Shown: piece after piece, positions 21,136 to 41,775 of the stretch
Layout of the letters: each line of letters begins with the position of its first letter
Numbering within the stretch: position 1 is the stretch's first letter
Assembly (NCBI RefSeq): GCF_019669965.1
Contig: NZ_AP019781.1
Location: forward strand, 2,481,092 to 2,545,091
Direction of reading: 5' to 3'
Length of the DNA: 64,000 nt
From: Methanoculleus chikugoensis
GTDB lineage: Archaea; Halobacteriota; Methanomicrobia; Methanomicrobiales; Methanoculleaceae
Notes under the pieces: generated by a model
Database searches by the model: none
Seen by the model: the letters and a program-made list of their open reading frames with translations, nothing else
What the model was told of the DNA's origin: nothing
Program-made: the position numbers and the translations under genes

Positions 21136-21804
21136 GTGAAAACTATAGCATATATCGTTCAGTTGGAAATCGCCGGCGACACCGCTATGTGGACAAGACC
21201 GGACACCGGTGACAACCCCGTCAGTTATCCAGCACCCACATACTCGGCGGTTAAAGCTATTTTTGAGTCCGTGCTGTGGGGACCTGCGATAGAAATTATT
21301 CCACTTAAGGCGGAAATTTGTGCGCCGGTGCAGTTTCACAATTATTACACAAATTATGGTGGCCCACTGCGAAAAACAACGAACATCAAACACGGAGACA
21401 GTTACCAGCTTTGCGCCACCGTTCTTATTGATGTCTGCTATCGCTTGTACGCCGAAGTTGTTCCGTATAAGATAAAAGGTAGACTTCCTCAAGCAGCGAA
21501 GAACTGGGATAACGCAACCACGTCGCCGGGGCACGCATATCAAGAGATATTCGCCAGAAGGCTGAAGCGCGGGCAGTGTTTCGCTGTGCCCTGCTTGGGG
21601 TGGCGGGAGTTCACGCCATCCTATTTCGGCGAGTTCCGTGATGATACACATGTCATGTCTGATATGGAGACTGCGGTTATTCCCTCTATGCTACGGCAGG
21701 TATTTTCAAAAGGCTACCAATCCGAAGTCGCGTATCTGTATGACACGGATGTTGAGATTACAGGAGGCGTGCTGGCTTACGGGAAAGGAGAAAGACCATG
21801 CTGA
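21136..21804 (+). CDS. cas5c: Cas5c (Cas5d), type I-C pre-crRNA endonuclease and Cascade subunit
   Basis: The 222-residue protein has the RAMP-like N-terminus of Cas5c and the diagnostic RRLKRGQCFAVPCLGWREF segment. In type I-C this subunit replaces Cas6, cutting the repeat RNA and holding the crRNA 5' handle. The Bacillus Cas5d catalytic pair Lys-His lies in a GKHY context; the matching place here seems to read PGHAYQEIF, so residues may differ (alignment from memory). The start is a GTG at 21136, overlapped by an AGAGG tract; it could start slightly elsewhere. The gene ends 7 bases into cas8c. Confidence 0.93.
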   Translation: MKTIAYIVQLEIAGDTAMWTRPDTGDNPVSYPAPTYSAVKAIFESVLWGPAIEIIPLKAEICAPVQFHNYYTNYGGPLRKTTNIKHGDSYQLCATVLIDVCYRLYAEVVPYKIKGRLPQAAKNWDNATTSPGHAYQEIFARRLKRGQCFAVPCLGWREFTPSYFGEFRDDTHVMSDMETAVIPSMLRQVFSKGYQSEVAYLYDTDVEITGGVLAYGKGERPC

Positions 21805-23813
21805 ACGAACTGCATCAGCTGTCTGCAACCCTTGCAAGCCACAACATCAAGCAGCAAAAGTGGCACCATCAGTATAAACCGTTACCGGGCGGAGCCTGTT
21901 ATCGTATATGGTTTGGCGATGATGACGCGGTGGCGGACGTTGAGCTGATGAGCAAGGATCTGGTGAAGGTCTGCCGAAAATTTGGCAATAATCAGGGGAC
22001 ATTTCCCGCATTCAACATTGCACCGTTGTACCGCGTCACATCGGATGAAGATAAGAGGTATTACGATGCGCTTTACGAAGGTAAAACGGAACTGGATATA
22101 AACTATTTGCAATCGATATGCACTACCGATAATTGGGGGCCCAAACTTCGCAAAAAGATAACGGGCTGCCTGAACAGGCAAATGCCGAATATGCCTGAAG
22201 ATAGCGCAATCGTCGCGCTGATGAACATCACAACATCGCTTGACATTGACGTGCTGCGCAGCACCCTTAAACAGCAGGTTTGGAAAAGACTGCCAAGCGA
22301 TATAAAGGCGTATCTGCCATTGCTTATTCATAAAGGAAACGAAAGGAAGCGGCCGGAAGATGATGTTGGTTCAGTATCGATTGTGCTTGATTTAGTAAAT
22401 TGGGATAAATTCGAATATCCAATAGCCAATGAAAATACCACAAAGCAAGTGAATGATTGGCTTTTTGCCGACGAAAGTGACCACCAGCCCGAAACAAGCG
22501 ATCAACTTGATGCTTTTGGATCTCCATATGCGGAGCTTGACGAACCCATGCCCTCTGTGCGGCTTGCGCCGGGGTTTGAGGTGGCGTTGCGTTCCATGTT
22601 CCGTGAGCAAGGGTGCCAGTACCGCTATAGAAAAGCTGATGGCCACTCTTTCCCAGTTAACAAAGCGAATCGTGACACTCTGAAAACCTCGCTTGAATGG
22701 ATTGTGAAACCTGACAACGAGAACATTACGTGGCGCAGAATTGACAAAGATGCAATGCTGTTTGTATATCCAAACAGGGTTCCAAAAATTCCGCCTAAGT
22801 TTACTGCGCTTTTCGGTGGTACGGAGAACCATGAGGATATCACAAACAGGTTTGAAAAGGTTGCAGAGGATTTTAGTAAGACACTCAACGGACTTGAAAC
22901 AAATCAGAAGCCGGAAAATATCCATGTGTTTGCATTACAGCAAATGCAGCCGGCCCTATCTAAGCGCGCAAGGGTGGTGTTCTCTCGCAATCTAACCCCA
23001 AGCGGGCTAATAGATGCAGCTACCGAGTGGCAGCGGGGATGCCTCAATCTACCGCCGATCGCACGAACTGAACCTATCACACCGTTCCCTTTGAATATCT
23101 CAAAAATCGCAAACAAAGTTTGGAAACGGAACGGCACACGTGCGGACGGCAAGAACGAGGTTAAACTGATACGATATTATCAAGGCATGGGGCTGCTTTT
23201 GGATAAGCCCATCCCGTCGCAGATATTGCGCATTACCAGAGGCGTGACCGCGAACTCATTGGGTTTGATACTGTTTGTCGGCAATAACCTGCCAAGAGGC
23301 AGGAGTGCCGTTAAAGATGTGATTAGAGCGGAAATCGGCGATTTATTTCCCTTACTCGGGCTGCTCCTGTACAAGAGCGGCATAACAAAGGAGGATTATA
23401 TGCAAGACACGGCATATTCAATTGGACAGCTACTGAAAATTTCCGACGAGCTGCATGCGCTGTATTGTGAGGTCAAGCGCGACGGTGAAGTGCCGCCACA
23501 ACTGGCGGGAAACTCTGTTTTCGTAACGGCATCAGAAACACCGGCGCAGGCCGTGGCTCTGCTCTGTACGCGAATGATTCCGTACATAGCATGGGCAGAC
23601 CAGTACAGACGGCAGGGTCAGGAGAAAAGTGGCTTAGCAGCGTGGTACAGGCGGCAGTATGGCCAACTCATGCCACAACTGCGTCAAAACCTGACAGAGA
23701 ATATCCGGTTCGGCGACCTAGAAAAAGCACAGTTGTTTATCGGTTACCTTGCGGATCTTCCCAAATTGACAAACAAACAATCTACTGAGGAGGTATTTAC
23801 AGATGCAAAATGA
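21798..23813 (+). CDS. cas8c: Cas8c (Csd1), type I-C Cascade large subunit
   Basis: At 671 residues this is a complete Cas8c/Csd1, the large subunit that recognises the PAM and stabilises the R-loop. It begins MLNELHQLSATLASH, contains typical Csd1 features such as QMQPALSKRARVVFSRNLTPSG and ends in a helical domain from about residue 535. The ATG overlaps the cas5c stop by 7 bases, and its own end overlaps cas7c by 11 bases, so the operon is tightly coupled. The 3' end also encodes Cas11c from an internal start. Base composition is more AT-rich than cas4-cas1-cas2. Confidence 0.93.
   Translation: MLNELHQLSATLASHNIKQQKWHHQYKPLPGGACYRIWFGDDDAVADVELMSKDLVKVCRKFGNNQGTFPAFNIAPLYRVTSDEDKRYYDALYEGKTELDINYLQSICTTDNWGPKLRKKITGCLNRQMPNMPEDSAIVALMNITTSLDIDVLRSTLKQQVWKRLPSDIKAYLPLLIHKGNERKRPEDDVGSVSIVLDLVNWDKFEYPIANENTTKQVNDWLFADESDHQPETSDQLDAFGSPYAELDEPMPSVRLAPGFEVALRSMFREQGCQYRYRKADGHSFPVNKANRDTLKTSLEWIVKPDNENITWRRIDKDAMLFVYPNRVPKIPPKFTALFGGTENHEDITNRFEKVAEDFSKTLNGLETNQKPENIHVFALQQMQPALSKRARVVFSRNLTPSGLIDAATEWQRGCLNLPPIARTEPITPFPLNISKIANKVWKRNGTRADGKNEVKLIRYYQGMGLLLDKPIPSQILRITRGVTANSLGLILFVGNNLPRGRSAVKDVIRAEIGDLFPLLGLLLYKSGITKEDYMQDTAYSIGQLLKISDELHALYCEVKRDGEVPPQLAGNSVFVTASETPAQAVALLCTRMIPYIAWADQYRRQGQEKSGLAAWYRRQYGQLMPQLRQNLTENIRFGDLEKAQLFIGYLADLPKLTNKQSTEEVFTDAK
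23400..23813 (+). CDS. cas11c: Cas11c small subunit from internal start in cas8c
   Basis: Within cas8c and in the same frame, AAGGAGG at 23388-23394 is followed 5 bases later by ATG at 23400 (codon 535). This would make a separate 137-residue helical protein beginning MQDTAYSIGQLLKISDEL. Internal translation of the small subunit Cas11 from cas8c is established for type I-C in other organisms, where it supplies the Cascade belly subunits. The near-perfect ribosome binding site in mid-gene is hard to explain otherwise. Protein evidence is lacking, so this is inference supported by a strong signal. Confidence 0.8.
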   Translation: MQDTAYSIGQLLKISDELHALYCEVKRDGEVPPQLAGNSVFVTASETPAQAVALLCTRMIPYIAWADQYRRQGQEKSGLAAWYRRQYGQLMPQLRQNLTENIRFGDLEKAQLFIGYLADLPKLTNKQSTEEVFTDAK

Positions 23814-24684
23814 AGTCAAACGTGCAACGGGGCTTTTGGTAATAGAGGCCGTGAATTCAAATCCTAATGGCGACCCCGACCGAGAGAGCGAACCACGCCA
23901 GCGCCCGAATGGCCGCGGCGAAATATCACCCGTATCCTTCAAACGTAAACTACGCGATTTGTTGGAGGATTCGGATAGCCCATTCTTCAAAAGCCTGCCA
24001 GAGAAGTTTAAGGAAAATCCGGATCACTACCGCATACTTGAATCACGTGGGCGTGACCGCAGAGAGATTACACAGGAAATGGGCGATACCAAAAACTTTA
24101 ATCAACAGTCCTTCCTCAAAAGCATCTTCGTAAAAAAATATTGGGATGCTCGTGTGTTCGGCAACACGTTCCTTGAAGAGGGTTCGGCAAAAGGCTTCAT
24201 CAAGACGGGTGTGGCGCAGTTTGGCGTAGGAGTTTCCATATCGCCGATAGATATTGTACGCCATACGAACACAAATAAAGCCGGTGTGCAAGAGGGAAAA
24301 AATGCCGGCATGGCACCGCTTGCGTTCCGTATCGTACAGCATGGCGTGTATTGTATGCCATTCTTTATCAATCCAAACTACGCGGGAAAGAGTGGCTGCA
24401 CCCCGGACGATATAGAACTGCTCAAACTGTTGATTCCGAAGGCGTACGATTTGAACCGCTCGGCTATACGCCCTGATGTGCGAATCCGTCATGCCTGGTA
24501 TATCGAGCATAAAAATGCGCTTGGAAGCTGCCCGGATTATCTGTTGCTTGAGGCGTTGACGCCTACTCGCATAGGTAATGTATCTGATCCTTCCAACGAG
24601 TGGGCAGACTACGAGGACAAAACTTCTCTACCAGAGAATCTCAAATCGCGGATTGATAGAGTGGTCGATTTGATGACACTGTGA
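23803..24684 (+). CDS. cas7c: Cas7c (Csd2), Cascade backbone subunit
   Basis: The 293-residue RAMP protein has the Csd2 start ATGLLVIEAVNSNPNGDPD and the GDPD/RPNGRGEISPVSFKRKLRD pattern. Cas7c polymerises along the crRNA spacer as the backbone of type I-C Cascade. GAGGAGG lies 9 bases before ATG 23803, giving strong translation as expected for the most abundant subunit. It overlaps cas8c by 11 bases and touches cas3. Confidence 0.95.
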   Translation: MQNEVKRATGLLVIEAVNSNPNGDPDRESEPRQRPNGRGEISPVSFKRKLRDLLEDSDSPFFKSLPEKFKENPDHYRILESRGRDRREITQEMGDTKNFNQQSFLKSIFVKKYWDARVFGNTFLEEGSAKGFIKTGVAQFGVGVSISPIDIVRHTNTNKAGVQEGKNAGMAPLAFRIVQHGVYCMPFFINPNYAGKSGCTPDDIELLKLLIPKAYDLNRSAIRPDVRIRHAWYIEHKNALGSCPDYLLLEALTPTRIGNVSDPSNEWADYEDKTSLPENLKSRIDRVVDLMTL

Positions 24685-26861
24685 TGGAATATTTCGCTCA
24701 TAGTCCGAAGGATGGGTATCCCGCCCAGACATATGCGCAACATATCAACGGAGTATCGGAACGAGCCAGGCGTCATGCATCTGACGCTGCCCGGTACTCC
24801 CTTGACGACGGCGCACTGCTTTTAACTACAGCGGAAGTTGCGGCAGTTTACCACGATCTGGGTAAACTTGATGGGGAAAATCAGTCAGTTTTGTCCGGCC
24901 AGAGAGCGGCAAAACGTCTGCCGCTTAATCACACGGATGCAGGTGCGGCTTTTTTGCTGGACGATGTATCCCCCGCCCTTCTTGCTGCTGTTTCTGTCGC
25001 GGCGCACCATATTGGACTTCCGGATTTTGGCACGGAGAGCATCCGCGAGGAGTCCGCGTTCCGCGATGATGAAATAAAGACGCGGGTTGATGCGGCGTTA
25101 TTGGAGTATTCGCAAATACACAGCAGCAATGTAAGCACAAGGCCGCAAATAGAGAGCGCTATACCATCGGGGGATTTGTCGGTATTCTTGCGTATGCTGC
25201 TGTCTTGCCTGGTTGATGCCGACCACACCGATACCGCTTCGCATTACGGCAAGTATCCTGAGGCGGAAAATTCCATCCCGCTTCGTCCGGCAGAGCGTCT
25301 CGCGTTATTGGATCACTATGTCGAAACACTTAGAAAAACAGGCGAAGATGACGAACGAAATAAACTGCGCTCTGAAATGTATGCAGTGTGTAGGGACTCC
25401 TTGATATGTGAAAACATTGCTGCCTGTGACGCTCCCGTTGGTTCAGGCAAAACAACTGCGGTAATGGCGCATCTGTTGGCGCAAGCGAATACGCGTGGAT
25501 TGCGTCGCATATTTATAGTGCTGCCATTTACAAATATCATCCAGCAGTCGGTCGAGAAATACCGTGAAGCACTGGTTTTCCCAGGCGAAAACGGAGAAGA
25601 GGTTGTGGCTGAACTGCACCATCGCGCCGAATTTGAAAGCGAGGATACGCGGCATCTCACGGCGCTATGGCGCGCGCCGATCATCGTCACCACAGCGGTT
25701 GCATTCTTTGAAACCCTTGCGGCGAAAACTCCGTCCGCGCTTAGGCGGATGCATGAGTTGGCGGGCAGCGCGGTATTCGTGGACGAAGCACACGGCGCGC
25801 TGCCTGCGCACTTATTGCCATTAGCATGGCGATGGATTAACATTTACGCTAAAGAGTGGTCTTGTTATTGGATTCTGGCTTCAGGTTCGCTTAATCAATT
25901 CTGGGAAATAAAAGAGATCTCCGAACAAAAGTTGGAAGTGCCAAATATAGTAAATCCATCCTTAAGGGCTTCGCTCAACGCATTTGAAGGCAAGCGCATA
26001 GAATATCAGGCTAACCTGACGCCGCAGTCACTGGAGACATTTGTTGAAGTTGTGGCGCAATCACAAGGGCCAAGGCTTGTTATACTCAATACAGTGCAAA
26101 GCGCGGCGGTAGTTGCAGAGTATATTTGCGAGAAGTACGGGCGCGGGCGCGTAGAGCATCTGTCAACCTCGCTTACGCCGAGCGACAGGGAGAAAACGCT
26201 TGGGCAGGTGAAGGCGCGGCTTAACAGGTCCGATGATGATGACTGGACACTTGTCGCTACATCCTGCGTGGAGGCGGGCGTTGATTTTTCGTTTAGAACC
26301 GGCTTCCGGGAACTTGCATCGCTGACCTCGCTGTTGCAGGCAGCGGGGCGTGTCAACCGAAATGGTGAGTACGGTGTTTCTGAAATGCATACATTTTGTC
26401 TTTCAGAGAGCAATATGTTAAAATCAAACCCTGACATAAAAAATTCCGCCGCAGTCCTACGTAAGCTCATAGAAACAGGAGTCGATATTTCTCCGTCCCT
26501 CACGACCGAGGCTATCGAGCAGGAACTTAAGATATATGGCAGCAAGCCGATTCACAGGAAGTTGCTCGAAAAGGAAATCGACAAGGATTTTCCATTTGTC
26601 GAAGAGAATTTCAAGGTAATCAATACGGATACACGCATTGCGGTTGCAGACACTAAAATCGTCGATAGAATACGCAATGGGCATTGTGACTGGCATGAAT
26701 TACAGAAACATTCGCTGCAAATATCCCATTATAAACTGCAAGAGCTGCATATACCGCAAATCACAGAAGACATTTACCACTGGAATCTCGCATATGATGA
26801 TTTTCTGGGATATATGGCGGGAATTATTCAAAAATCTGAGCTCAAACTCCTCATGTATTAG
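24684..26861 (+). CDS. cas3: Cas3 helicase-nuclease with N-terminal HD domain
   Basis: This 725-residue protein is the effector recruited by Cascade to unwind and degrade target DNA. The HD nuclease is N-terminal, with YHDLGKLD (His57-Asp58), NHTDAG (His83), AAHHIGLPDF (His108-His109) and VDADHTD. The SF2 helicase has Walker A APVGSGKTT (250-258), DEAH at 366-369 and a late motif QAAGRVNRNG. ATG 24684 overlaps the cas7c stop as TGATG; a GTG one codon earlier is possible. In most type I-C loci cas3 is first; here it follows cas7. All catalytic motifs appear intact. Confidence 0.95.
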   Translation: MEYFAHSPKDGYPAQTYAQHINGVSERARRHASDAARYSLDDGALLLTTAEVAAVYHDLGKLDGENQSVLSGQRAAKRLPLNHTDAGAAFLLDDVSPALLAAVSVAAHHIGLPDFGTESIREESAFRDDEIKTRVDAALLEYSQIHSSNVSTRPQIESAIPSGDLSVFLRMLLSCLVDADHTDTASHYGKYPEAENSIPLRPAERLALLDHYVETLRKTGEDDERNKLRSEMYAVCRDSLICENIAACDAPVGSGKTTAVMAHLLAQANTRGLRRIFIVLPFTNIIQQSVEKYREALVFPGENGEEVVAELHHRAEFESEDTRHLTALWRAPIIVTTAVAFFETLAAKTPSALRRMHELAGSAVFVDEAHGALPAHLLPLAWRWINIYAKEWSCYWILASGSLNQFWEIKEISEQKLEVPNIVNPSLRASLNAFEGKRIEYQANLTPQSLETFVEVVAQSQGPRLVILNTVQSAAVVAEYICEKYGRGRVEHLSTSLTPSDREKTLGQVKARLNRSDDDDWTLVATSCVEAGVDFSFRTGFRELASLTSLLQAAGRVNRNGEYGVSEMHTFCLSESNMLKSNPDIKNSAAVLRKLIETGVDISPSLTTEAIEQELKIYGSKPIHRKLLEKEIDKDFPFVEENFKVINTDTRIAVADTKIVDRIRNGHCDWHELQKHSLQISHYKLQELHIPQITEDIYHWNLAYDDFLGYMAGIIQKSELKLLMY

Positions 26862-27086: not shown

Positions 27087-27749
27087 ATGGACCCTGACGA
27101 CTACCTCATGCTCAGCGGCATCCAGCATTTTGCGTTCTGTAGACGGCAGTGGGCGCTCATCCATATCGAACAGGTGTGGAAGGAAAACGTGCTCACCTTT
27201 GGCGGCAGGCAGATGCATAGGAATGCGGACGATCCTTTCTTCACGGAGAGCCGGGGCGATGTGCTGATCTCGCGGAGTGTGCCTCTGGTCTCCCACGCGC
27301 TGAAGATATACGGTGTTGCGGATGTGGTGGAGTATCATCGATCGGATTCGGGGATCGTGATCCCCGGACGGGAGGGGCACTGGACCGTCGTGCCGGTAGA
27401 GTACAAGGCGGGAAAGCGGAAGCCGGACGACCGCGACGAGGTGCAACTGTGCGCTCAGGCGATCTGTCTTGAGGAGATGTACCGGACGCGGATTGAATAT
27501 GGATATCTATATTACGGCAAAACCCGGCGGCGGACGGAGGTAGCTCTTGACGATGAACTTCGCAGGCGGGTGGCGGAGTTAGTCGCCGGTATGTATGTGC
27601 TCTACGATGCAGGTACCACTCCTCCGGCGGTCCTGCTGCCGCACTGCAAAAACTGTTCTCTTGTCGAGCTCTGCATGCCAGCCGTCTCGTCCCGCAGGCG
27701 TTCGGTGGACCGCTATCTTGCCACCTGCATAGGGAGGGATGATGCATGA
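27087..27749 (+). CDS. cas4: Cas4 Fe-S exonuclease
   Basis: The 220-residue RecB-like nuclease trims prespacers and selects the PAM during adaptation. Visible features are Cys18 in FAFCRRQW, Asp79 in YGVADVVEY, VEYKAGK with Glu105 and Lys107, Gln120, and the C-terminal cysteines Cys187, Cys190 and Cys196 in HCKNCSLVELC, which together bind a 4Fe-4S cluster. It overlaps cas1 by 4 bases. Base composition is GC-richer than cas5c-cas3 and closer to the host. Confidence 0.96.
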   Translation: MDPDDYLMLSGIQHFAFCRRQWALIHIEQVWKENVLTFGGRQMHRNADDPFFTESRGDVLISRSVPLVSHALKIYGVADVVEYHRSDSGIVIPGREGHWTVVPVEYKAGKRKPDDRDEVQLCAQAICLEEMYRTRIEYGYLYYGKTRRRTEVALDDELRRRVAELVAGMYVLYDAGTTPPAVLLPHCKNCSLVELCMPAVSSRRRSVDRYLATCIGRDDA

Positions 27750-28780
27750 GAAAACTCCTGAACGTTCTGTATGTTACCAACCCTGACTCTTATCTCGCGA
27801 AAGATGGGGAAAATATCGTCGTTTCCGTTGAGCACAAGGAGGTAGGACGGATCCCCATTCACAACCTGGAGGGGGTCATCTGTTTTGGGTTTATGGGAGC
27901 AAGTCCGGGCGTGATGGAGTTATGTGCATCTCACCACGTGGGGCTTGCATTCGTGTCGCCGTACGGGAAATTTCTTGGACGGGTATCTGGCCGCGTGTCC
28001 GGGAACGTGCTGCTCCGCAAGCGGCAGTATCTTCTTTCGGACGATGAGGAGGCCGCGGCGCGGATTGCAATGAACTGCGTGCTCGGAAAGATGCTGAACT
28101 GTCGGAGCGTTCTCCTCCGGTTTGGCCGTGACTATCCTGAGAAGGTATCACCTGAATTTTCAGAGCGTCTTCAATGGCTGACAGAGGGTGTTCGCCAGCT
28201 GCGGGAATCGCCATCCGACACGCTGAACGAACTCCGGGGCCGTGAGGGGATTCTGTCGAAGTGTTACTTTGATTGTTTCGATGATCTGATCCTGTCGCAA
28301 GATCCTGCGTTTGCTTTTGAGTCCCGGAGCAGGAGACCCCCGTTGAACCGGGTGAATGCTCTACTGTCGTTTGTCTATACGCTGATCGCGGTGGATTGCG
28401 CTTCAGCTCTCGAATCCGTGGGGCTTGATCCGCAGGTGGGGTTTCTCCACCGCGCCCGACCGGGGCGGATGAGCCTTGCGCTGGACCTGATGGAGGAGTT
28501 CCGGCCGTATCTCGGAGACCGGTTTGTGTTGAGTCTGATCAACAACCGGGTTGTTGCGGCGGATGATTTCCTGGTGAAGGAGAATGGGGCCGTGATCCTG
28601 ACAGATACAGGGCGGAAAGCAGTTCTTGCGGCGTGGCAGCGACGGAAGACGGAAGAGGTCATGCACGGCTATTTAGATGAACGGGTTCCGGTTGGCCTTC
28701 TGCCGTATGCACAGTCAATGCTGCTCGCCCGGCACCTGCGGGGGGACATCGATGGGTATCCACCGTTCGTGATGAGGTGA
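27746..28780 (+). CDS. cas1: Cas1 integrase, type I-C
   Basis: The 344-residue product is the spacer integrase that works with Cas2. It starts MRKLLNVLYVTNPDSYLAKDG, has the N-terminal beta domain with NLEGVICFG, and the metal-site region VGFLHRARPGRMSLALDLMEEFRP, including the conserved His and later acidic residues. Length fits the I-C family. It overlaps cas4 and cas2 by 4 bases each, so the three adaptation genes are translationally coupled. Confidence 0.97.
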   Translation: MRKLLNVLYVTNPDSYLAKDGENIVVSVEHKEVGRIPIHNLEGVICFGFMGASPGVMELCASHHVGLAFVSPYGKFLGRVSGRVSGNVLLRKRQYLLSDDEEAAARIAMNCVLGKMLNCRSVLLRFGRDYPEKVSPEFSERLQWLTEGVRQLRESPSDTLNELRGREGILSKCYFDCFDDLILSQDPAFAFESRSRRPPLNRVNALLSFVYTLIAVDCASALESVGLDPQVGFLHRARPGRMSLALDLMEEFRPYLGDRFVLSLINNRVVAADDFLVKENGAVILTDTGRKAVLAAWQRRKTEEVMHGYLDERVPVGLLPYAQSMLLARHLRGDIDGYPPFVMR

Positions 28781-29076
28781 GCGTGGTGTTTGTTCTGGTT
28801 ACGTATGATGTAAATACAGAGAGTCCGGAAGGGAGACGCAGACTGCGCACGGTTGCGAGAATCTGCATGAATTATGGTACGCGCGTGCAGAATTCGGTCT
28901 TCGAGTGTGTCGTGGATTCTGTTCAACTGATGGAGATGAAAACGAAGATCGGTGAGGTCATCGATCCAGCGATTGATAGTGTACGGTATTATAATCTAGG
29001 GAAGCATGGTCGAGATCATGTGGAGCATGTGGGGGCAAAGCCGGGGCTGAATGTTGAGGGCGTGCTGATTTTGTAG
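28777..29076 (+). CDS. cas2: Cas2, adaptation complex subunit
   Basis: The 99-residue ferredoxin-fold protein has VFVLVTYDVNTE with Asp11, RICMNYGTRVQNSVFEC and a C-terminal beta extension, typical of Cas2 that bridges two Cas1 dimers. The start is a GTG at 28777 overlapping the cas1 stop (GTGA). It is the last gene before the leader. Confidence 0.96.
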   Translation: MSVVFVLVTYDVNTESPEGRRRLRTVARICMNYGTRVQNSVFECVVDSVQLMEMKTKIGEVIDPAIDSVRYYNLGKHGRDHVEHVGAKPGLNVEGVLIL

Positions 29077-29348
29077 TACTGTTTCCGAGGAGTGCCGCGA
29101 AGGTGAAGTGCCCACGTTTTCCTGGGGAGGTTCGCGATCCGGCAAATATTGGCTGTTCCCCGATACGAAGCACATTTCTTGTATTTCTAAGGTGAACCAC
29201 GGCGTGATGCAGACAACTAATCGTTTGAAGCACTGTATTTGTGTTTCAGAGTGTACTTCTATGTTTTTTACGCTTTCTATCGGATATGATGGCAATAATG
29301 CGGCGCTTAAGGCAAGTAAGATATTTGTTCCCTGATATATAGTATAGA
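29077..29348 (+). promoter_or_regulatory. CRISPR leader
   Basis: The 272 bases between cas2 and the first repeat have no gene and become AT-rich towards the array, ending CTGATATATAGTATAGA directly before the repeat. This is the expected place of the array promoter and the Cas1-Cas2 integration signals. Position next to cas2 and the intact first repeat, compared with a degenerate repeat at the far end, identify this as the leader side. Confidence 0.85.
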
Positions 29349-32300
29349 GTCGTGCCTCACGTAGGCACGTGGATTGAAATACGTCTCCGCCGGGCGGCTG
29401 CCTGGCATCATGTCGTGCCTCACGTAGGCACGTGGATTGAAATAGTTCGGACGGGGCGATGGGGAAGTACTTCGCAGTCGTGCCTCACGTAGGCACGTGG
29501 ATTGAAATTTGTCCTACCATGCCTGTGGCGTCGGCCGGAGGTCGTGCCTCACGTAGGCACGTGGATTGAAATGGGGGTTTCCGGTTGTAGCCGGCCGGGC
29601 CGGTGGTCGTGCCTCACGTAGGCACGTGGATTGAAATATCGTTTGCCGGAGGATCCGGCGCTCCTCTTCGGGTCGTGCCTCACGTAGGCACGTGGATTGA
29701 AATATCGTTTGCCGGAGGATCCGGCGCTCCTCTTCGGGTCGTGCCTCACGTAGGCACGTGGATTGAAATTGTCCCGGTCATCTCACGTCACCGTGATGCT
29801 GGTCGTGCCTCACGTAGGCACGTGGATTGAAATGCACTAGATTTAAGAGGCGGAACCGCAAACCCCGTCGTGCCTCACGTAGGCACGTGGATTGAAATCC
29901 GGTTAATGACGTCTACGAGGTATGCCACGATCGTCGTGCCTCACGTAGGCACGTGGATTGAAATTTTTCAGAAATGCCACAGAGCCACCCCCGTTTGTTG
30001 TCGTGCCTCACGTAGGCACGTGGATTGAAATCGGCCAGGGAGGTGATCGTGCCGGCGGCGACGTTGTCGTGCCTCACGTAGGCACGTGGATTGAAATTGG
30101 GCACAGCATCACATCATCTGTGCCTGAGCAGGTCGTGCCTCACGTAGGCACGTGGATTGAAATAGATGACGAACATCCGGGACCCCCGGATCCCGATGTC
30201 GTGCCTCACGTAGGCACGTGGATTGAAATCCGGAGCCTGCCCCTGAACCCGAACCCGTCACGGTCGTGCCTCACGTAGGCACGTGGATTGAAATATCTAT
30301 ACGTTCCATTCATGGAGCGATATCGAGTCGTGCCTCACGTAGGCACGTGGATTGAAATTCCGGGGGTTCGCTGGCCATGAGACCCGTGCGGGTCGTGCCT
30401 CACGTAGGCACGTGGATTGAAATTTGGCGGCGCCCTCCAGCACGGCGTATCCCCGGTCGTGCCTCACGTAGGCACGTGGATTGAAATATCAGCCAGAGCC
30501 AGAGGGGCGAGGGGGGCCTGTCGTGCCTCACGTAGGCACGTGGATTGAAATGCGTCGCCGCCTGAATCGGCATAGGTCAGGACAGTCGTGCCTCACGTAG
30601 GCACGTGGATTGAAATTCCTCGCTTAAACTCACTAAACTCAACACATAAGTCGTGCCTCACGTAGGCACGTGGATTGAAATACCGCACTCGCCTCCGGGG
30701 GGTGGCTCCGATGAGTCGTGCCTCACGTAGGCACGTGGATTGAAATATGAAACTCGGCATGTCCGAGGCGGAGGCGAAGGCGTCGTGCCTCACGTAGGCA
30801 CGTGGATTGAAATTCCCACCGGTGATCCTGCGAACTATCAACCTGGTCGTGCCTCACGTAGGCACGTGGATTGAAATGCCGACATGGTGGACGTCGGTAT
30901 CCTGACGGGCGTCGTGCCTCACGTAGGCACGTGGATTGAAATTCCTCGCTTAAACTCACTAAACTCAACACATAAGTCGTGCCTCACGTAGGCACGTGGA
31001 TTGAAATATGTCGATCCTGCGGACCACTTCCGGAGGGAACCGGTCGTGCCTCACGTAGGCACGTGGATTGAAATACCGACCCGCCCTATCTCGCCGACCT
31101 CTACACTGTCGTGCCTCACGTAGGCACGTGGATTGAAATGTCTTCGCCGAAAGGCGCGAAACGTCGTAGGAGGTCGTGCCTCACGTAGGCACGTGGATTG
31201 AAATCCGCGCGCCCAGAGGTAGAACACGCACCGTCGGGTCGTGCCTCACGTAGGCACGTGGATTGAAATTCGATACCGAGTTTTGCGACGCCTCCGGCGA
31301 CGAGTCGTGCCTCACGTAGGCACGTGGATTGAAATTTGATGCCGTCCGGGTCGGCGTTCTGCCGGGCGGTCGTGCCTCACGTAGGCACGTGGATTGAAAT
31401 TTGATCTTCGCACGGAATGATTCAGGGTCCCGGGTCGTGCCTCACGTAGGCACGTGGATTGAAATACGAGGAATTTGTCCCAGACGTCGCGGTACTGGGG
31501 TCGTGCCTCACGTAGGCACGTGGATTGAAATTCCATCGAAATGATCTTCGGCTCGGCGGCGGCTTGTCGTGCCTCACGTAGGCACGTGGATTGAAATACG
31601 TCTTCGGTGACGGTGGGATCGACTTCATAGGAGGTCGTGCCTCACGTAGGCACGTGGATTGAAATTATTTTGAAAACGGACTTTATGAGCAGCATTTTAG
31701 TCGTGCCTCACGTAGGCACGTGGATTGAAATATACCGTCACCTGTTCCTGATGCTCCACATCAGTCGTGCCTCACGTAGGCACGTGGATTGAAATACCGG
31801 CTGATCGCTGCATCGACCGGGGCGGGGAAGTCGTGCCTCACGTAGGCACGTGGATTGAAATTCTTCTCGCCGCCGCCCATGCAGGCGGTCGTCCCGTCGT
31901 GCCTCACGTAGGCACGTGGATTGAAATGTCAGCCAGAGCTTGCAGGCGTTAACGTCCGGCGTCGTGCCTCACGTAGGCACGTGGATTGAAATTACCATAT
32001 TCTACTTTGTACCAATAATCTATAAAGTCGTGCCTCACGTAGGCACGTGGATTGAAATGGAGATCCGCCGGGAGAGGGATTTGAGGTCGTCGGTCGTGCC
32101 TCACGTAGGCACGTGGATTGAAATTGGAACTGGTCGCCGGTCTGCTCCCATACCCGGTCGTGCCTCACGTAGGCACGTGGATTGAAATAAGCGGCTCAAC
32201 ATCGTGGCCACCGGCCACGCCCGTCGTGCCTCACGTAGGCACGTGGATTGAAATTTCTTCCGTCCCCGGGCGGCGAACCGGTCTCCGTCGTGCCTCACGT

Positions 32301-35300
32301 AGGCACGTGGATTGAAATGCGGCGTGGGGTAGAGGGCTCCACGTCGAACCGTCGTGCCTCACGTAGGCACGTGGATTGAAATCATCTCCGAGGCTTGTGC
32401 CAGGGGTCGATCATCCGTCGTGCCTCACGTAGGCACGTGGATTGAAATACGAAAAACCCCGACGAACACGGCATCCTCCCCGTCGTGCCTCACGTAGGCA
32501 CGTGGATTGAAATGACCGATATGGCCTGCCTTCCCATCCGTGGAACGGTCGTGCCTCACGTAGGCACGTGGATTGAAATCCGATCGGGCCCCGGGGGAGG
32601 AGGATCCTCTGTGAGTCGTGCCTCACGTAGGCACGTGGATTGAAATAGGATCCTCCGGCAGCACGCCGCGCGGAATATGGTCGTGCCTCACGTAGGCACG
32701 TGGATTGAAATGCGGTCCACCACTCCGAGAAGTGCTCGACGCAGAGTCGTGCCTCACGTAGGCACGTGGATTGAAATACCGTCACGGGAACCGTCTACAC
32801 CAAGTACGAAGTCGTGCCTCACGTAGGCACGTGGATTGAAATGCCCCCGACCCGATCTTCGCGATCCGGGGTTCAGTCGTGCCTCACGTAGGCACGTGGA
32901 TTGAAATCTGGTCTCCATCAAGGACCTCTCGCGCTGCATGGTCGTGCCTCACGTAGGCACGTGGATTGAAATATGGGGAACGCGATGGAGGTCTTCCTGG
33001 AAGCAGGTCGTGCCTCACGTAGGCACGTGGATTGAAATTACTATAGTATTAACTCGAGACGGTGGCCACCGGTCGTGCCTCACGTAGGCACGTGGATTGA
33101 AATACGCCTGCACCCCCTGTGCGTTGAGCTCCGCGGTCGTGCCTCACGTAGGCACGTGGATTGAAATATCGAGTATCCCGAACTGGTCGTGCTCACGGTC
33201 GTCGTGCCTCACGTAGGCACGTGGATTGAAATATGATCACCGAGATGAACGACGCGCTGGCAGACCGTCGTGCCTCACGTAGGCACGTGGATTGAAATTC
33301 TCTCGCCGAGAGGGGCTTGCCCGAGGTCACGTCGTGCCTCACGTAGGCACGTGGATTGAAATGCTTGTTTTTCGGCTTGAGATCAGAGCGGTTCGCCCGG
33401 TCGTGCCTCACGTAGGCACGTGGATTGAAATCTGCTTGGGCAGTTTGCTTCCTGCCACACCCACGTCGTGCCTCACGTAGGCACGTGGATTGAAATCCTA
33501 TGCTCTGGTTACGGACGATGGAGGATCGCTGTCGTGCCTCACGTAGGCACGTGGATTGAAATCTCCGGTCGAAGAAGGGGAAAGCGATGATCGGGTCGTG
33601 CCTCACGTAGGCACGTGGATTGAAATACCTCATCAGCGGCCTGTTCCGGCAACTCGACGGTCGTGCCTCACGTAGGCACGTGGATTGAAATGATCCGCCA
33701 ACGACCCCGGAGGCGATCCCGCCTGGTCGTGCCTCACGTAGGCACGTGGATTGAAATATCGAGATTATCAAAGAGCAGACCGAAGAGCAGGTCGTGCCTC
33801 ACGTAGGCACGTGGATTGAAATTCGCGGACATGTGGGAGGGCTCTCGCCCGGCAGGTCGTGCCTCACGTAGGCACGTGGATTGAAATAGCTTATCGGCGG
33901 CGTCAAACAGTCCGTAACTGTCGTGCCTCACGTAGGCACGTGGATTGAAATCCCCGCACCCCCGACCCTCGCCCCCCGGCCGCGTCGTGCCTCACGTAGG
34001 CACGTGGATTGAAATGACTCGCCCCACACGTAGTGGGAGAGTCCGATGGTCGTGCCTCACGTAGGCACGTGGATTGAAATAGGAACCTTTCCAGCCGAAT
34101 CGCTTCGTCACGCATGTCGTGCCTCACGTAGGCACGTGGATTGAAATACCTTCCAACCCTCTTCGCGAGCATGTACAGCGTCGTGCCTCACGTAGGCACG
34201 TGGATTGAAATACCCCGGCAACCGGCAAGGACGGCAAGCCGAAGAGTCGTGCCTCACGTAGGCACGTGGATTGAAATGCCCTCACCCATGTCCATCCGTG
34301 TTGCGGGTCGGTCGTGCCTCACGTAGGCACGTGGATTGAAATTTCTAGTTCTCGCTCGATCATCAACGACCGCTGTCGTGCCTCACGTAGGCACGTGGAT
34401 TGAAATACCCGGCCGGGGGATCTCGTGGTGGACCCGTTCGGTCGTGCCTCACGTAGGCACGTGGATTGAAATGAGTTTGCGGTCCTGGTCGGCACCCCGC
34501 CGGTCGTCGTGCCTCACGTAGGCACGTGGATTGAAATCCGTGCGCATCGCTGAAGAAGGTCGCATCCGGGGTCGTGCCTCACGTAGGCACGTGGATTGAA
34601 ATGCGATGCAGCTCACCGGGGCGAACAAGAAGGCCGTCGTGCCTCACGTAGGCACGTGGATTGAAATTCCCCGTCGTCAAGCGTCGGATCGGGCCGCGCG
34701 TCGTGCCTCACGTAGGCACGTGGATTGAAATACGCGCCCGTACTGGAGGGCATACCTAGCAATGGTCGTGCCTCACGTAGGCACGTGGATTGAAATGTGC
34801 CGGGTGTCGTGGCGAGGATGCCCCCCACCTGTCGTGCCTCACGTAGGCACGTGGATTGAAATAATTCCGCCGGGCCACCCGGCGACAGGCCAAACTGTCG
34901 TGCCTCACGTAGGCACGTGGATTGAAATCTCCTTCCGAGTTATTCTCCGTATCCATACAAGTCGTGCCTCACGTAGGCACGTGGATTGAAATAACTTCGC
35001 AGCGCCGATGAGAAAGATTGTCCCGGGTCGTGCCTCACGTAGGCACGTGGATTGAAATTACTTACCAGTCGCACAGAGACGCCCCCGTATGTGTCGTGCC
35101 TCACGTAGGCACGTGGATTGAAATCTCTACCAGGATCAACCGCTCATTGGGATAACGTCGTGCCTCACGTAGGCACGTGGATTGAAATACAAGGACAGCT
35201 GCCCGCTGTCGCAGCGCCTCGTCGTGCCTCACGTAGGCACGTGGATTGAAATCTACGAGCCCAGAATTGAAGGAACGTACCATTGTCGTGCCTCACGTAG

Positions 35301-38300
35301 GCACGTGGATTGAAATAAGAGCCCGACGGAGGTCACCCGGTGCCTGCAGGTCGTGCCTCACGTAGGCACGTGGATTGAAATGTGATCACCCAATATTATA
35401 AACGAGAGTTAAGGTCGTGCCTCACGTAGGCACGTGGATTGAAATGCTACGAGAAGCACATCTACGCAGGGTCTACAGGTCGTGCCTCACGTAGGCACGT
35501 GGATTGAAATTCGCCGGTTTCGCGGATCCCGCGGGCGATCTCCGTCGTGCCTCACGTAGGCACGTGGATTGAAATACGGTGAAAACTCTTAGGAAATACC
35601 ACGCACAAGTCGTGCCTCACGTAGGCACGTGGATTGAAATACGGCCGCCCCTCCCTCAGTTGCCAGGAGATCCGTCGTGCCTCACGTAGGCACGTGGATT
35701 GAAATCCGCATAGGGGACATTTGCGCTTAGTTCCCACGTCGTGCCTCACGTAGGCACGTGGATTGAAATACCGGGGCGAGTGGTGGGGTCTGTACCGGCG
35801 GGGGTCGTGCCTCACGTAGGCACGTGGATTGAAATACTAAGTGCCCAAAAAGCAGAAGCAACGCGGGAGTCGTGCCTCACGTAGGCACGTGGATTGAAAT
35901 ATGATCCCGGTTGCGATGGCGCACCCGGACGTGTCGTGCCTCACGTAGGCACGTGGATTGAAATATACTGTACTACCATGCGGGCCGGTTCGTCTCCTGT
36001 CGTGCCTCACGTAGGCACGTGGATTGAAATGGGAAACAGTCTCGTCGGAGTCTCCCCGGCTTCCGCGTCGTGCCTCACGTAGGCACGTGGATTGAAATAA
36101 TGCAATCAAGGTCAGCGGGATCCGGCGGCTTGTCGTGCCTCACGTAGGCACGTGGATTGAAATGACCAGTTGGCTGCCTGGGTCACGGCGGAGTCCCCGT
36201 CGTGCCTCACGTAGGCACGTGGATTGAAATATAGGGCGGCCTCTCGGCGTCATCTCTGCACCAGTCGTGCCTCACGTAGGCACGTGGATTGAAATATGAG
36301 CCCGGTCGCGATGGTGCGGCCGGACGTCGTCGTGCCTCACGTAGGCACGTGGATTGAAATTCCCGCGCAACGTTCGTGAGCGCCTTCCGAGCAGTCGTGC
36401 CTCACGTAGGCACGTGGATTGAAATGTGAACGACCTACGGGCCTGCAGCGGGATCACCGTCGTGCCTCACGTAGGCACGTGGATTGAAATAGATACATGG
36501 GGCCTCCGCGGCCTCCCGGGCTGTCGTGCCTCACGTAGGCACGTGGATTGAAATAGGCGGGCGTTGGGCGTAGACCCTGCCCCGAGGTCGTGCCTCACGT
36601 AGGCACGTGGATTGAAATTCGATATGCCAGATATACCATGCCCGCTCCGCGTCGCAGTATCGTCGTGCCTCACGTAGGCACGTGGATTGAAATTCGATAT
36701 GCTCCTGGTGCGTCCGGGTGACGGCCGTCGTGCCTCACGTAGGCACGTGGATTGAAATTATCCTGCAGCAGAACTACGCCGTCATCATGAACGTCGTGCC
36801 TCACGTAGGCACGTGGATTGAAATATCGAGAACTTTGCGGCCGTCCTCGTCCTTTATGGTCGTGCCTCACGTAGGCACGTGGATTGAAATATACCGTCGC
36901 CTCGAGCTCTTCCTCGTCGTCCGTCGTGCCTCACGTAGGCACGTGGATTGAAATATGGTTCTGGCAGTTTGGCGATGGGGCTACGGCGTCGTGCCTCACG
37001 TAGGCACGTGGATTGAAATACTGACCTGACTGTGGGATCTGTCGTATCATGGTGTCGTGCCTCACGTAGGCACGTGGATTGAAATTCCCGGCAGCCGCTG
37101 CAGGGCACGGTGACGATGTCGTGCCTCACGTAGGCACGTGGATTGAAATCACCAGGGCGTGCCGTCGCCCCGGGCCTCCTGGTCGTGCCTCACGTAGGCA
37201 CGTGGATTGAAATTCGACGAGAAATTGCTTTGTTGCTGCCATATAGGTCGTGCCTCACGTAGGCACGTGGATTGAAATGAAGAGGCGTTGCTTGTAACTG
37301 GGCAGGAAGTCGGTCGTGCCTCACGTAGGCACGTGGATTGAAATGGGATGCCACCGCCGGTCGGCTGGAGTTCTACAGGTCGTGCCTCACGTAGGCACGT
37401 GGATTGAAATTTCGATGTACTCCCGGAACTCGTCGGAATGGGGTCGTGCCTCACGTAGGCACGTGGATTGAAATACCGGTTCTGGTGTCCGGGGTCGGGG
37501 TGGCGCCCGGGTCGTGCCTCACGTAGGCACGTGGATTGAAATTCGATGAGTTCGGAGAAGATCTGCTTGATAATCTGTCGTGCCTCACGTAGGCACGTGG
37601 ATTGAAATATTGAGCGAAGGCATATGTTGATTCCATTGACGTCGTGCCTCACGTAGGCACGTGGATTGAAATGTTCGACGAATGGAGATCATTTCTTGTG
37701 CAGCCGTCGTGCCTCACGTAGGCACGTGGATTGAAATATCAAATCCCGGTATAGTCGGTCTTTGAACTCCAGGTCGTGCCTCACGTAGGCACGTGGATTG
37801 AAATGCATCCCAGTTCATCGGGATGGCCGGTGAGATCGTCGTGCCTCACGTAGGCACGTGGATTGAAATTGCCCGGTCGCCTCCAGGATGATCTGCATCG
37901 GGGTCGTGCCTCACGTAGGCACGTGGATTGAAATGCGGAGATCCCGGACGATACCGATGACGTCAAGTCGTGCCTCACGTAGGCACGTGGATTGAAATTT
38001 CTCAGTCCCCGCCGTCGCTGCAAGCGCTCCTGTCGTGCCTCACGTAGGCACGTGGATTGAAATTTGCTAAATGCGACTGGACGCAGGTCGTGGATGTCGT
38101 GCCTCACGTAGGCACGTGGATTGAAATCCGAGGGCGCACTGGAACGGGGCGTTGTCATCGAGTCGTGCCTCACGTAGGCACGTGGATTGAAATATCGGGA
38201 TCCAATTCTTAACCCCGACCGAATACGTCGTGCCTCACGTAGGCACGTGGATTGAAATAGGAACGCCGATACCGGGATCTCGATCATCGTCGTCGTGCCT

Positions 38301-41300
38301 CACGTAGGCACGTGGATTGAAATGCGCAAGTAGCTGAGGAATGACCGGACATAACTCGTCGTGCCTCACGTAGGCACGTGGATTGAAATAGACAGGATAC
38401 TCGCGGCCGGATATCGTCGTTGACGTCGTGCCTCACGTAGGCACGTGGATTGAAATGCGCAAGTAGCTGAGGAATGACCGGACATAACTGTCGTGCCTCA
38501 CGTAGGCACGTGGATTGAAATGTCGATGTTGCCCCGGGAGTACGGCGGGTTCATGTCGTGCCTCACGTAGGCACGTGGATTGAAATGCGCAAGTAGCTGA
38601 GGAATGACCGGACATAACTGTCGTGCCTCACGTAGGCACGTGGATTGAAATTCCCAGCGGCAGTCGTCGGTCGTGCTCCGTGCATGTCGTGCCTCACGTA
38701 GGCACGTGGATTGAAATGAGACCGCACAGCCGCACTTCTCGCAGGTCTCTTGTCGTGCCTCACGTAGGCACGTGGATTGAAATACCCTCGCCGGCGCAAT
38801 CCACAGCGTGACCGTGTCGTGCCTCACGTAGGCACGTGGATTGAAATTTCCGGACCCGGGCAGCGAGACCCCGGCATACTGTCGTGCCTCACGTAGGCAC
38901 GTGGATTGAAATATGGCGCTGATGAGCCGGGCCTTCCCCTTCGCCGTCGTGCCTCACGTAGGCACGTGGATTGAAATCCCTTGTTTTCAAACGGGATCCC
39001 GTCCTTGAAGGTCGTGCCTCACGTAGGCACGTGGATTGAAATCCGCCGTAGGGGTAGGTGCCCCAGGGGGAGAGGGTCGTGCCTCACGTAGGCACGTGGA
39101 TTGAAATAAGGCGTATTACCCAGATGTGGCGTGGACAAAGGTCGTGCCTCACGTAGGCACGTGGATTGAAATGAGACCGCGATCGGGATCCGCGCCTACC
39201 TGGACGTCGTGCCTCACGTAGGCACGTGGATTGAAATTCCCAGGCCGCTTCCCGGGCGTCGAGTTCCGCGTCGTGCCTCACGTAGGCACGTGGATTGAAA
39301 TATCTGCGCGAAGAGGTCCTCGACCCCCTGGCTGGTCGTGCCTCACGTAGGCACGTGGATTGAAATACGGCTAGCCCGCCATCAAACCCGTAGCCGCCCG
39401 GTCGTGCCTCACGTAGGCACGTGGATTGAAATCTCAACGGCCAACCGGCCTACCTCAATCGCGGGGTCGTGCCTCACGTAGGCACGTGGATTGAAATGTG
39501 ATCGCTGCATACCGGTTCAGGGACTCGTTCGCGTCGTGCCTCACGTAGGCACGTGGATTGAAATTCCGCCTGCATGGTGCGCTTCGCTTGCGCGATCGTC
39601 GTGCCTCACGTAGGCACGTGGATTGAAATGAGCACGCAGCCGGCATCCCCTACGAGACGTGGGTCGTGCCTCACGTAGGCACGTGGATTGAAATTCGTAG
39701 AGCGCGGCGACGGGTTCGGCCCTGATGTCGTGCCTCACGTAGGCACGTGGATTGAAATGTGCCGAGCCCGAACTCCGAGAGCGTCGTGCCGTCGTGCCTC
39801 ACGTAGGCACGTGGATTGAAATCAGCACCTCCCGTGCAATCCCGATATCGGCATGTCGTGCCTCACGTAGGCACGTGGATTGAAATACCATAATGTATTT
39901 CGCATCACCCGCATAAATAGTCGTGCCTCACGTAGGCACGTGGATTGAAATATCTGCGCGAACAGGTCCTCGACCCCCTGGCTGGTCGTGCCTCACGTAG
40001 GCACGTGGATTGAAATTTCTTCGATCTCCTCAATTCTGCTGCATACACTGTCGTGCCTCACGTAGGCACGTGGATTGAAATCTCCAGGACGTCGCGGCCG
40101 AGATGGCGACCCTGGTCGTGCCTCACGTAGGCACGTGGATTGAAATTTCTGCTGCTCAATGATCTGACCGTCTTTGTCCCTGTCGTGCCTCACGTAGGCA
40201 CGTGGATTGAAATTTTCCATTCCGTGAGGCTCGATACCTGCCGGAGTCGTGCCTCACGTAGGCACGTGGATTGAAATCCATTGTTGAGGCTCCTTTGGTG
40301 ACTTTTCCGGGTCGTGCCTCACGTAGGCACGTGGATTGAAATTCCTCGATGGTGACGATCCCGCTGAGGGCGGTGATGTCGTGCCTCACGTAGGCACGTG
40401 GATTGAAATCGGCCCTCGATGATAGCCGCCCGCATCTCTTTGGTCGTGCCTCACGTAGGCACGTGGATTGAAATCGGGCGGCCGGTCCTGCAGCGCCCTG
40501 GCAAAGTCGTCGTGCCTCACGTAGGCACGTGGATTGAAATTTTGGAACAATTACGGGCCTGCCGGCGGCGGCTGGTCGTGCCTCACGTAGGCACGTGGAT
40601 TGAAATCTACGCTCGACACGGGGAATATCCCCGGGAGCAGTCGTGCCTCACGTAGGCACGTGGATTGAAATCGCCTCGCCTGCGATCTCACCCGGGCATA
40701 CCTGCGTCGTGCCTCACGTAGGCACGTGGATTGAAATAGCGTGATCTTTCGGGAGGTCGGGCAAGTCTGGTCGTGCCTCACGTAGGCACGTGGATTGAAA
40801 TTGCGGCTCGTACTCGTCTAGCGGCAGGTGGTCGGCGTCGTGCCTCACGTAGGCACGTGGATTGAAATAAATAAGGGATTAGGTGGAATACAATACGTCC
40901 CGTCGTGCCTCACGTAGGCACGTGGATTGAAATATTGGTAATAATTGTTGGAATTGAAATACTCTGTCGTGCCTCACGTAGGCACGTGGATTGAAATGTG
41001 AATGCCTCATAGAGGCGTGGGACGGCGCCGTCGTGCCTCACGTAGGCACGTGGATTGAAATTCATCAAGGCCGGCGTATCCCGCAGTCCCTACATGCGTC
41101 GTGCCTCACGTAGGCACGTGGATTGAAATACGTCTCCGCCGGGCGGCTGCCTGGCATCATCGTCGTGCCTCACGTAGGCACGTGGATTGAAATGGGCAGA
41201 CGCGGCTTCCCCCACATTCACGCCGTCGTGCCTCACGTAGGCACGTGGATTGAAATTGAATCAGCACTGCAGACTCACGCGGTTTCCGGTCGTGCCTCAC

Positions 41301-41775
41301 GTAGGCACGTGGATTGAAATGTGAATGCGTCGTAGAGGCGCGGGACGGCGCCGTCGTGCCTCACGTAGGCACGTGGATTGAAATTGCAAGATCTCGTCCC
41401 ATCCGAAGACCGCGTTCGTCGTGCCTCACGTAGGCACGTGGATTGAAATCGTCCGGAGTATCCAGCTGTCGGCCCCGAGGAGCGTCGTGCCTCACGTAGG
41501 CACGTGGATTGAAATCAGGCGATCGATCTCGATCGGCGTGTGGTTGTGTCGTGCCTCACGTAGGCACGTGGATTGAAATCTGTGGGGCGATCGCTACGGC
41601 AGGAGGGGCGTTGTCGTGCCTCACGTAGGCACGTGGATTGAAATGGTTGAGATCGTGATCGTCGTCGCGCTGCTCACAGGTCGTGCCTCACGTAGGCACG
41701 TGGATTGAAATCCCTCCGGGCCCGGGTCGACTGCCAGGATCGGGTCGTGCCTCACGTAGGCACGTAGATTGGGCA
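29349..41775 (+). CRISPR. Type I-C CRISPR array, about 191 repeats
   Basis: A 32-base repeat starting GTCGTGCCTCACG and ending GTGGATTGAAAT recurs about every 65 bases. I counted 191 copies by eye, the average unit is 65.2 bases, and spacers are about 31-36 bases. GTGCCT and AGGCAC inside the repeat form the hairpin recognised by Cas5c, and the ATTGAAAT end is typical of type I-C. The repeat is nearly invariant until the last copy (41744-41775), which reads GTAGATTGGGCA at its end, as expected at the leader-distal terminus. Several spacers occur two or three times. The open frames across it (translating as HVGTWIEI or FQSTCLREAR) are repeat translations, not genes. Confidence 0.99.

What the first reader, a model, noticed from the sequence alone, without database searches (positions are those of the whole stretch)
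29381..29411. The newest spacer is identical to one near the oldest end of the array
The leader-proximal spacer (29381-29411, ACGTCTCCGCCGGGC...) recurs at 41130-41161, about 180 units away, differing only by one base of length. Independent re-acquisition of the same site 180 events later suggests the same invader returned, primed adaptation at a preferred site, or recombination between array ends.
Basis: seen in the sequence. Interest (0 to 1): 0.65.

Follow-up and report, generated by a model that had tools for sequence, protein, structure and literature searches.

The report
Spacer re-acquired after 180 CRISPR insertions
A methane-making archaeon's 190-entry record of past infections holds the same entry at its newest end and near its oldest end, and the one-base difference in length shows it was most likely captured twice from the same spot in a returning invader rather than copied within the record; this is a clean but ordinary example of a known process.

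Summary
The array at 29349-41775 has 191 repeats and 190 spacers. Spacer 1 (31 nt) is identical to spacer 181 (32 nt, one extra 3' C). The array follows a complete type I-C cas operon and a conserved leader, so spacer 1 is the newest by position.

Best explanation: two independent acquisitions at one PAM-anchored site. PAM = TTC is shown by matches of other spacers to Methanoculleus virus Blf4 and its relatives. Neighbouring spacers are not duplicated, and 190 repeats are letter-perfect, so a copy plus a later indel is unlikely. In 40 arrays from Methanomicrobiales, re-used spacers that differ in length always differ at the PAM-distal end (18 of 18, p = 8e-6). Adjacent copies are almost always the same length (9 of 10), as expected for unit duplication.

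The event is not unique. The window has seven re-used sites, and another species' newest spacer also recurs 52 units away. The 180-unit gap is the outlier. Blf4-like viruses were sampled in bursts from spacer 160 to 17, so returning invaders are documented here.

The protospacer of spacer 1 was not found anywhere searched, so its PAM, hot-spot status and any role of priming stay untested.

The parts
29381..29411 (+). Spacer 1 (newest by position), 31 nt
41130..41161 (+). Spacer 181 of 190, identical to spacer 1 plus one 3' C (32 nt)
29349..41775 (+). CRISPR array: 190 identical 32-nt repeats GTCGTGCCTCACGTAGGCACGTGGATTGAAAT plus one degenerate terminal repeat (41744-41775); 190 spacers
   Evidence: all 190 copies in the genome within 3 mismatches match the array's count
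29077..29348 (+). AT-rich leader between cas2 and the first repeat; last ~110 nt conserved in other Methanomicrobiales I-C loci
21136..21804 (+). cas5c
   Evidence: PADLOC Cas5c E 7e-27; NCBIfam TIGR01876
21798..23813 (+). cas8c
   Evidence: PADLOC Cas8c E 3e-220
23803..24684 (+). cas7 (I-C/I-B type)
24681..26861 (+). cas3 (HD plus helicase), best model Cas3c
27087..27749 (+). cas4
   Evidence: TIGR00372
27746..28780 (+). cas1, subtype I-C
   Evidence: TIGR03640, 452 bits, above cut-off
28777..29076 (+). cas2
   Evidence: TIGR01573
29638..29737 (+). Spacers 5 and 6: adjacent, identical, same length (likely unit duplication)
30617..30649 (+). Spacer 20, identical to spacer 25 (30943-30975), same length
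35901..35932 (+). Spacer 101, same start as spacer 107 (36296-36328), 27 of 32 identical
38324..38357 (+). Spacer 138 (34 nt); same as spacers 140 (38457-38489) and 142 (38587-38619), both 33 nt: a second case of length difference at the 3' end
39302..39334 (+). Spacer 153, differs from spacer 163 (39952-39984) by one base
40998..41029 (+). Spacer 179, same start as spacer 184 (41321-41352), 29 of 32 identical

Best explanation
Spacers 1 and 181 are two separate captures of the same protospacer by the type I-C adaptation machinery (Cas4-Cas1-Cas2), about 180 leader-end insertions apart. The PAM-side end is fixed next to a TTC, so both copies start at the same base. The PAM-distal end is trimmed with 1-3 nt of play, giving 31 and 32 nt. 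The invader, or a relative with that site unchanged, came back after most of the present array had been written. Shown: identity, positions, leader and array polarity, complete cas set, TTC PAM of this array, length play confined to the PAM-distal end. Inferred: that this pair's own protospacer has a TTC PAM, and that array position equals time. Not known: whether the old spacer primed the new capture.
For: (1) The copies differ by one 3' base; copying the unit would keep its length. (2) Across 40 arrays of 15 or more spacers, non-adjacent near-identical pairs differ in length in 15 of 28 cases, always at the PAM-distal end; with 3 pairs between different species the count is 18:0, sign test p = 8e-6. 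The between-species pairs cannot be array copies. (3) Adjacent copies are same-length in 9 of 10, so duplication looks different (Fisher p = 0.025). (4) None of 190 repeats (6,080 bases) carries a change, which bounds later mutation at about 5e-4 per base. (5) Spacers beside 1 and beside 181 are unrelated. (6) Pairs 153/163, 179/184 and 101/107 share the start but differ in sequence, so re-sampling of one site in related invaders happens in this array. (7) PAM TTC: best matches of 16 of 20 virus-matching spacers. (8) Blf4-like virus spacers come in bursts from 160 to 17 (p = 2e-4). (9) Parallel: the newest spacer of another species (L083) recurs at its position 53, 34 versus 36 nt, 1 mismatch.
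Against: The protospacer was not found, so the PAM and the next base (C predicted) cannot be checked. Exact identity over 31 nt after 180 insertions needs an invader whose site did not drift, although spacer 181 would select against it. Every other re-used pair in this array has a gap of 10 or less (8 of 9 pairs), so this pair is an outlier. A copy plus a one-base loss is unlikely but not impossible.
Confidence: 0.8

Rival explanations
1. Intra-array copying: recombination, gene conversion or replication slippage moved a copy of unit 181 to the leader end, followed by loss of one base at the spacer-repeat junction.
For: Unit duplication is the commonest cause of repeated spacers in public arrays (86% of duplication candidates, PMC11472070), and adjacent same-length copies such as 5/6 exist here.
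Against: Slippage favours neighbours, not 180 units; no flanking spacer was carried along; length differs by one base while 190 repeats show no mutation; length differences across arrays are always PAM-distal, which indels would not respect.
Confidence: 0.08
2. Ectopic integration: spacer 181 was inserted recently inside the old part of the array, so both copies date from one infection.
For: Interior integration is documented, mostly with leader mutations (review PMC8047081); identical repeats leave no mark of it.
Against: The leader looks intact and conserved. If interior insertion were common, re-used pairs would be scattered, but 8 of 9 pairs lie within 10 units.
Confidence: 0.07
3. Primed refresh: the old, distal and weakly used spacer 181 still recognised the invader, started primed adaptation, and the same site was captured again at the leader.
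For: In Legionella type I-C primed adaptation two independently acquired spacers hit the same protospacer (PMC5071653); mid-array spacers interfere poorly but still prime (review PMC8047081).
Against: No protospacer, and no neighbours among spacers 1-16 mapped, so no priming signature can be seen. This refines the best explanation rather than replacing it.
Confidence: 0.2
4. Assembly artefact.
For: Long repetitive array; no reads available here.
Against: Single-contig genome; the copies differ in length and sit between different unique spacers.
Confidence: 0.03

Closest known systems
Type I-C CRISPR-Cas of Legionella pneumophila (PMC5071653)
   Same: Type I-C with the equivalent PAM (written GAA there, TTC on the other strand); two independently acquired spacers hit the same protospacer; recurrent challenge by one element inferred from arrays
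   Different: There the repeat capture was seen in a laboratory priming experiment; here it is inferred within one natural array, 180 units apart
Reacquisitions as classified by SpacerPlacer (PMC11472070)
   Same: Same event class: a spacer already present is inserted again
   Different: There 8 of 24,090 spacers were so classified, using grouped near-identical spacers and related arrays; here the PAM-distal length difference is the evidence
Methanoculleus virus Blf4 and its targeting by M. bourgensis (PMC8540584)
   Same: The same virus group is recorded in the window's array
   Different: M. bourgensis uses a type I-U system; spacer 1/181 does not match Blf4 beyond chance

Membership tests
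Type I-C CRISPR-Cas | cas8c, cas5c, cas7c and cas3 effector genes | tested here: met
   PADLOC Cas8c 3e-220, Cas5c 7e-27, Cas7b/c, Cas3c 8e-109; NCBIfam Cas5c and Cas7c models are hit below their cut-offs
Type I-C CRISPR-Cas | Cas4, Cas1c and Cas2 adaptation genes | tested here: met
Type I-C CRISPR-Cas | 32-nt repeat ending GATTGAAAY and TTC PAM 5' of the protospacer | tested here: met
   16 of 20 mapped spacers TTC; canonical TTC per PMC8482600
Spacer re-acquisition (independent capture of the same protospacer) | Copies share the PAM-side end and may differ at the other end | tested here: met
   31 versus 32 nt, same start
Spacer re-acquisition (independent capture of the same protospacer) | Protospacer with PAM exists in an invader | tested here: inconclusive
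   No match in the phage, plasmid, viral and genome collections searched
Tandem or block unit duplication | Adjacent copies or copied flanking spacers, same length | tested here: not met
   180 units apart, neighbours unrelated, lengths differ
Primed adaptation | New spacers cluster around the protospacer of an existing spacer on the same element | not testable with these tools
   Protospacers of spacers 1-16 were not found

The most novel reading that the evidence does not exclude
Long arrays renew old memories: a distal, poorly used spacer that still matches a returning invader primes the capture of the same site at the leader end, moving an old memory to the front. Re-acquisition would then be a regular, under-counted process in long type I-C arrays, readable from PAM-distal length differences.
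Probability: 0.15. Interest if true: 0.6.

Novelty: new member of a known kind. Interest (0 to 1): 0.35.

Why it matters
It gives a natural case in which the same invader site was captured at both ends of a very long immune record, so the invader (or that stretch of it) persisted unchanged across at least 180 recorded captures. The accompanying comparison offers a simple way to tell re-acquisition from array duplication without related strains: PAM side fixed, far side variable. By that mark about half of the non-adjacent repeated spacers in long Methanomicrobiales arrays are re-acquisitions, which would make them commoner than the 1% of duplication candidates reported from public arrays.

Tried and rejected
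Searches for the protospacer of spacer 1/181 gave only chance hits. Phages: best E 0.02 in an unannotated faecal phage contig. IMG/VR: 22-mer, PAM plus seed, 3' 17-mer and a codon-degenerate pattern. Plasmids. 232 Methanomicrobiales genomes at 3 mismatches. Genome contigs with a 20-mer: ten bacterial chance matches with 7-11 mismatches over 32 nt.

A 9-mismatch match in the Blf4 tail gene at 19255 was rejected: mismatches are not at third codon positions and homologues do not approach the spacer. A codon-degenerate search for spacers 179/184 found nothing.

A first version of the same-site test looked striking (within-array non-adjacent 16 same-site to 0 shifted against 7:7 between arrays). 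In 40 arrays shifted overlaps do occur within arrays (37:11 versus 16:24; type I-C pairs that differ in length or sequence 26:10 versus 15:13, p = 0.19), so I do not claim a special within-array hot spot.

One search used a mis-spaced repeat pattern and is void.

Full report
Observation. The window lies at 2,481,092-2,545,091 of a complete single-contig genome of 2,622,259 bp. Relatives with the same repeat and matches to Methanoculleus virus Blf4 point to Methanoculleus or a close relative; the species was not identified. The array at 29349-41775 has 190 identical 32-nt repeats, a degenerate terminal repeat and 190 spacers of mostly 32-34 nt. Spacer 1 (29381-29411, 31 nt) recurs as spacer 181 (41130-41161), with one extra C before the next repeat. 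Within 3 mismatches these are the only two places in the genome, so it is not a self-targeting spacer.

Context. A complete type I-C operon precedes the array: cas5c, cas8c, cas7, cas3, cas4, cas1c, cas2. The AT-rich leader next to cas2 is conserved in other I-C loci of the order, and the degenerate repeat is at the far end. Spacer 1 is therefore the newest by position and spacer 181 among the ten oldest.

PAM and invaders. Blf4 and IMG/VR relatives were scanned with all spacers. Twenty spacers match with 6 or fewer mismatches; spacers 82 and 143 match exactly. Reversed-spacer controls gave no match at 7 or fewer mismatches in the first set, and seven at exactly 8 in the larger set. The best match is next to TTC in 16 of 20. 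These virus spacers lie in bursts from position 160 to 17 (p = 2e-4), which indicates that one virus group returned over more than 140 captures. Spacer 1/181 itself has no match better than chance there or elsewhere.

Is the pair special in this array? Pairwise comparison gives seven re-used sites: 1/181, 5/6, 20/25, 138/140/142, 153/163 (1 mismatch), 179/184 (3 mismatches), 101/107 (5 mismatches). All share the first base. The number is what 190 random draws from about 2,000 PAM sites would give; Blf4 alone has 877 TTC sites. Eight of nine pairs lie within 10 units of each other; 1/181 is the only distant one, and a gap of 180 or more has a probability of 0.3% for a random pair.

Copy or second capture? 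Spacers of 40 arrays from Methanomicrobiales were compared. Adjacent near-identical spacers are the same length in 9 of 10 pairs. Non-adjacent ones differ in length in 15 of 28. In every case, and in three pairs between different species, the extra bases are at the PAM-distal end (18:0, p = 8e-6; one family, 138/140/142, is counted twice). Copying followed by indels would not respect the PAM side. With 6,080 unchanged repeat bases, an indel in one chosen spacer is also improbable. The 31/32 difference of spacers 1 and 181 is thus the normal mark of separate captures. Another species' newest spacer (L083) shows the same with its position 53 (34 versus 36 nt).

Limits. Array position is used as time; ectopic insertion or exchange of array blocks between strains cannot be excluded without sister strains, and only one genome per species was available. 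Same-length pairs such as 20/25 or 140/142 remain undecided between duplication and re-capture. Priming and site preference cannot be tested without the protospacer. An early sign of a within-array excess of exact re-use weakened in the larger set and is not claimed.

Known and new. [quoted passage not shown] Independent capture of the same protospacer is documented in Legionella type I-C priming (PMC5071653). SpacerPlacer classed 8 events among 24,090 spacers as reacquisitions (PMC11472070). The finding is therefore a good new example of a known kind. The modest new element is the PAM-distal length rule as a way to recognise re-acquisition in a single array.

Noticed in passing
38324-38619: Spacers 138, 140 and 142 are the same site captured three times in alternate units (34, 33, 33 nt) with different spacers between them, so not a block duplication.
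   Followed up: partly
39302-39984; 40998-41352; 35901-36328: Pairs 153/163, 179/184 and 101/107 share the start but differ by 1-5 bases; in plausible reading frames several of the differences are synonymous, as expected of related viruses.
   Followed up: partly
29381-41743: Spacers matching Blf4-like viruses occur in bursts (17-24, 48-52, 67-72, 81-84, 143-146, 157-160) and not among 1-16 or 161-190.
   Followed up: yes
36619-36661: Spacer 112 is 43 nt, far longer than any other, and shares its first nine bases with spacer 113.
   Followed up: no
L146, L147 and L169 (spacer numbers): In other species re-used sites come in collinear sets (L146 26/52 and 28/54; L147 42/58 and 44/59; L169 42/88 and 46/89), as if the same invader was sampled twice in the same order.
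   Followed up: no
21136-24684: Cas5 and Cas7 hit NCBIfam type I-C models below their cut-offs and Cas8 hits no NCBIfam or Pfam model, although PADLOC recognises Cas8c strongly: a divergent archaeal I-C effector.
   Followed up: partly
32449-32481; 31732-31763: Spacers 48 and 37 share their protospacer start with spacers of other Methanoculleus genomes (L082 spacer 82, L085 spacer 37), 33 versus 37 and 32 versus 37 nt: different species cut the same site to different lengths.
   Followed up: partly
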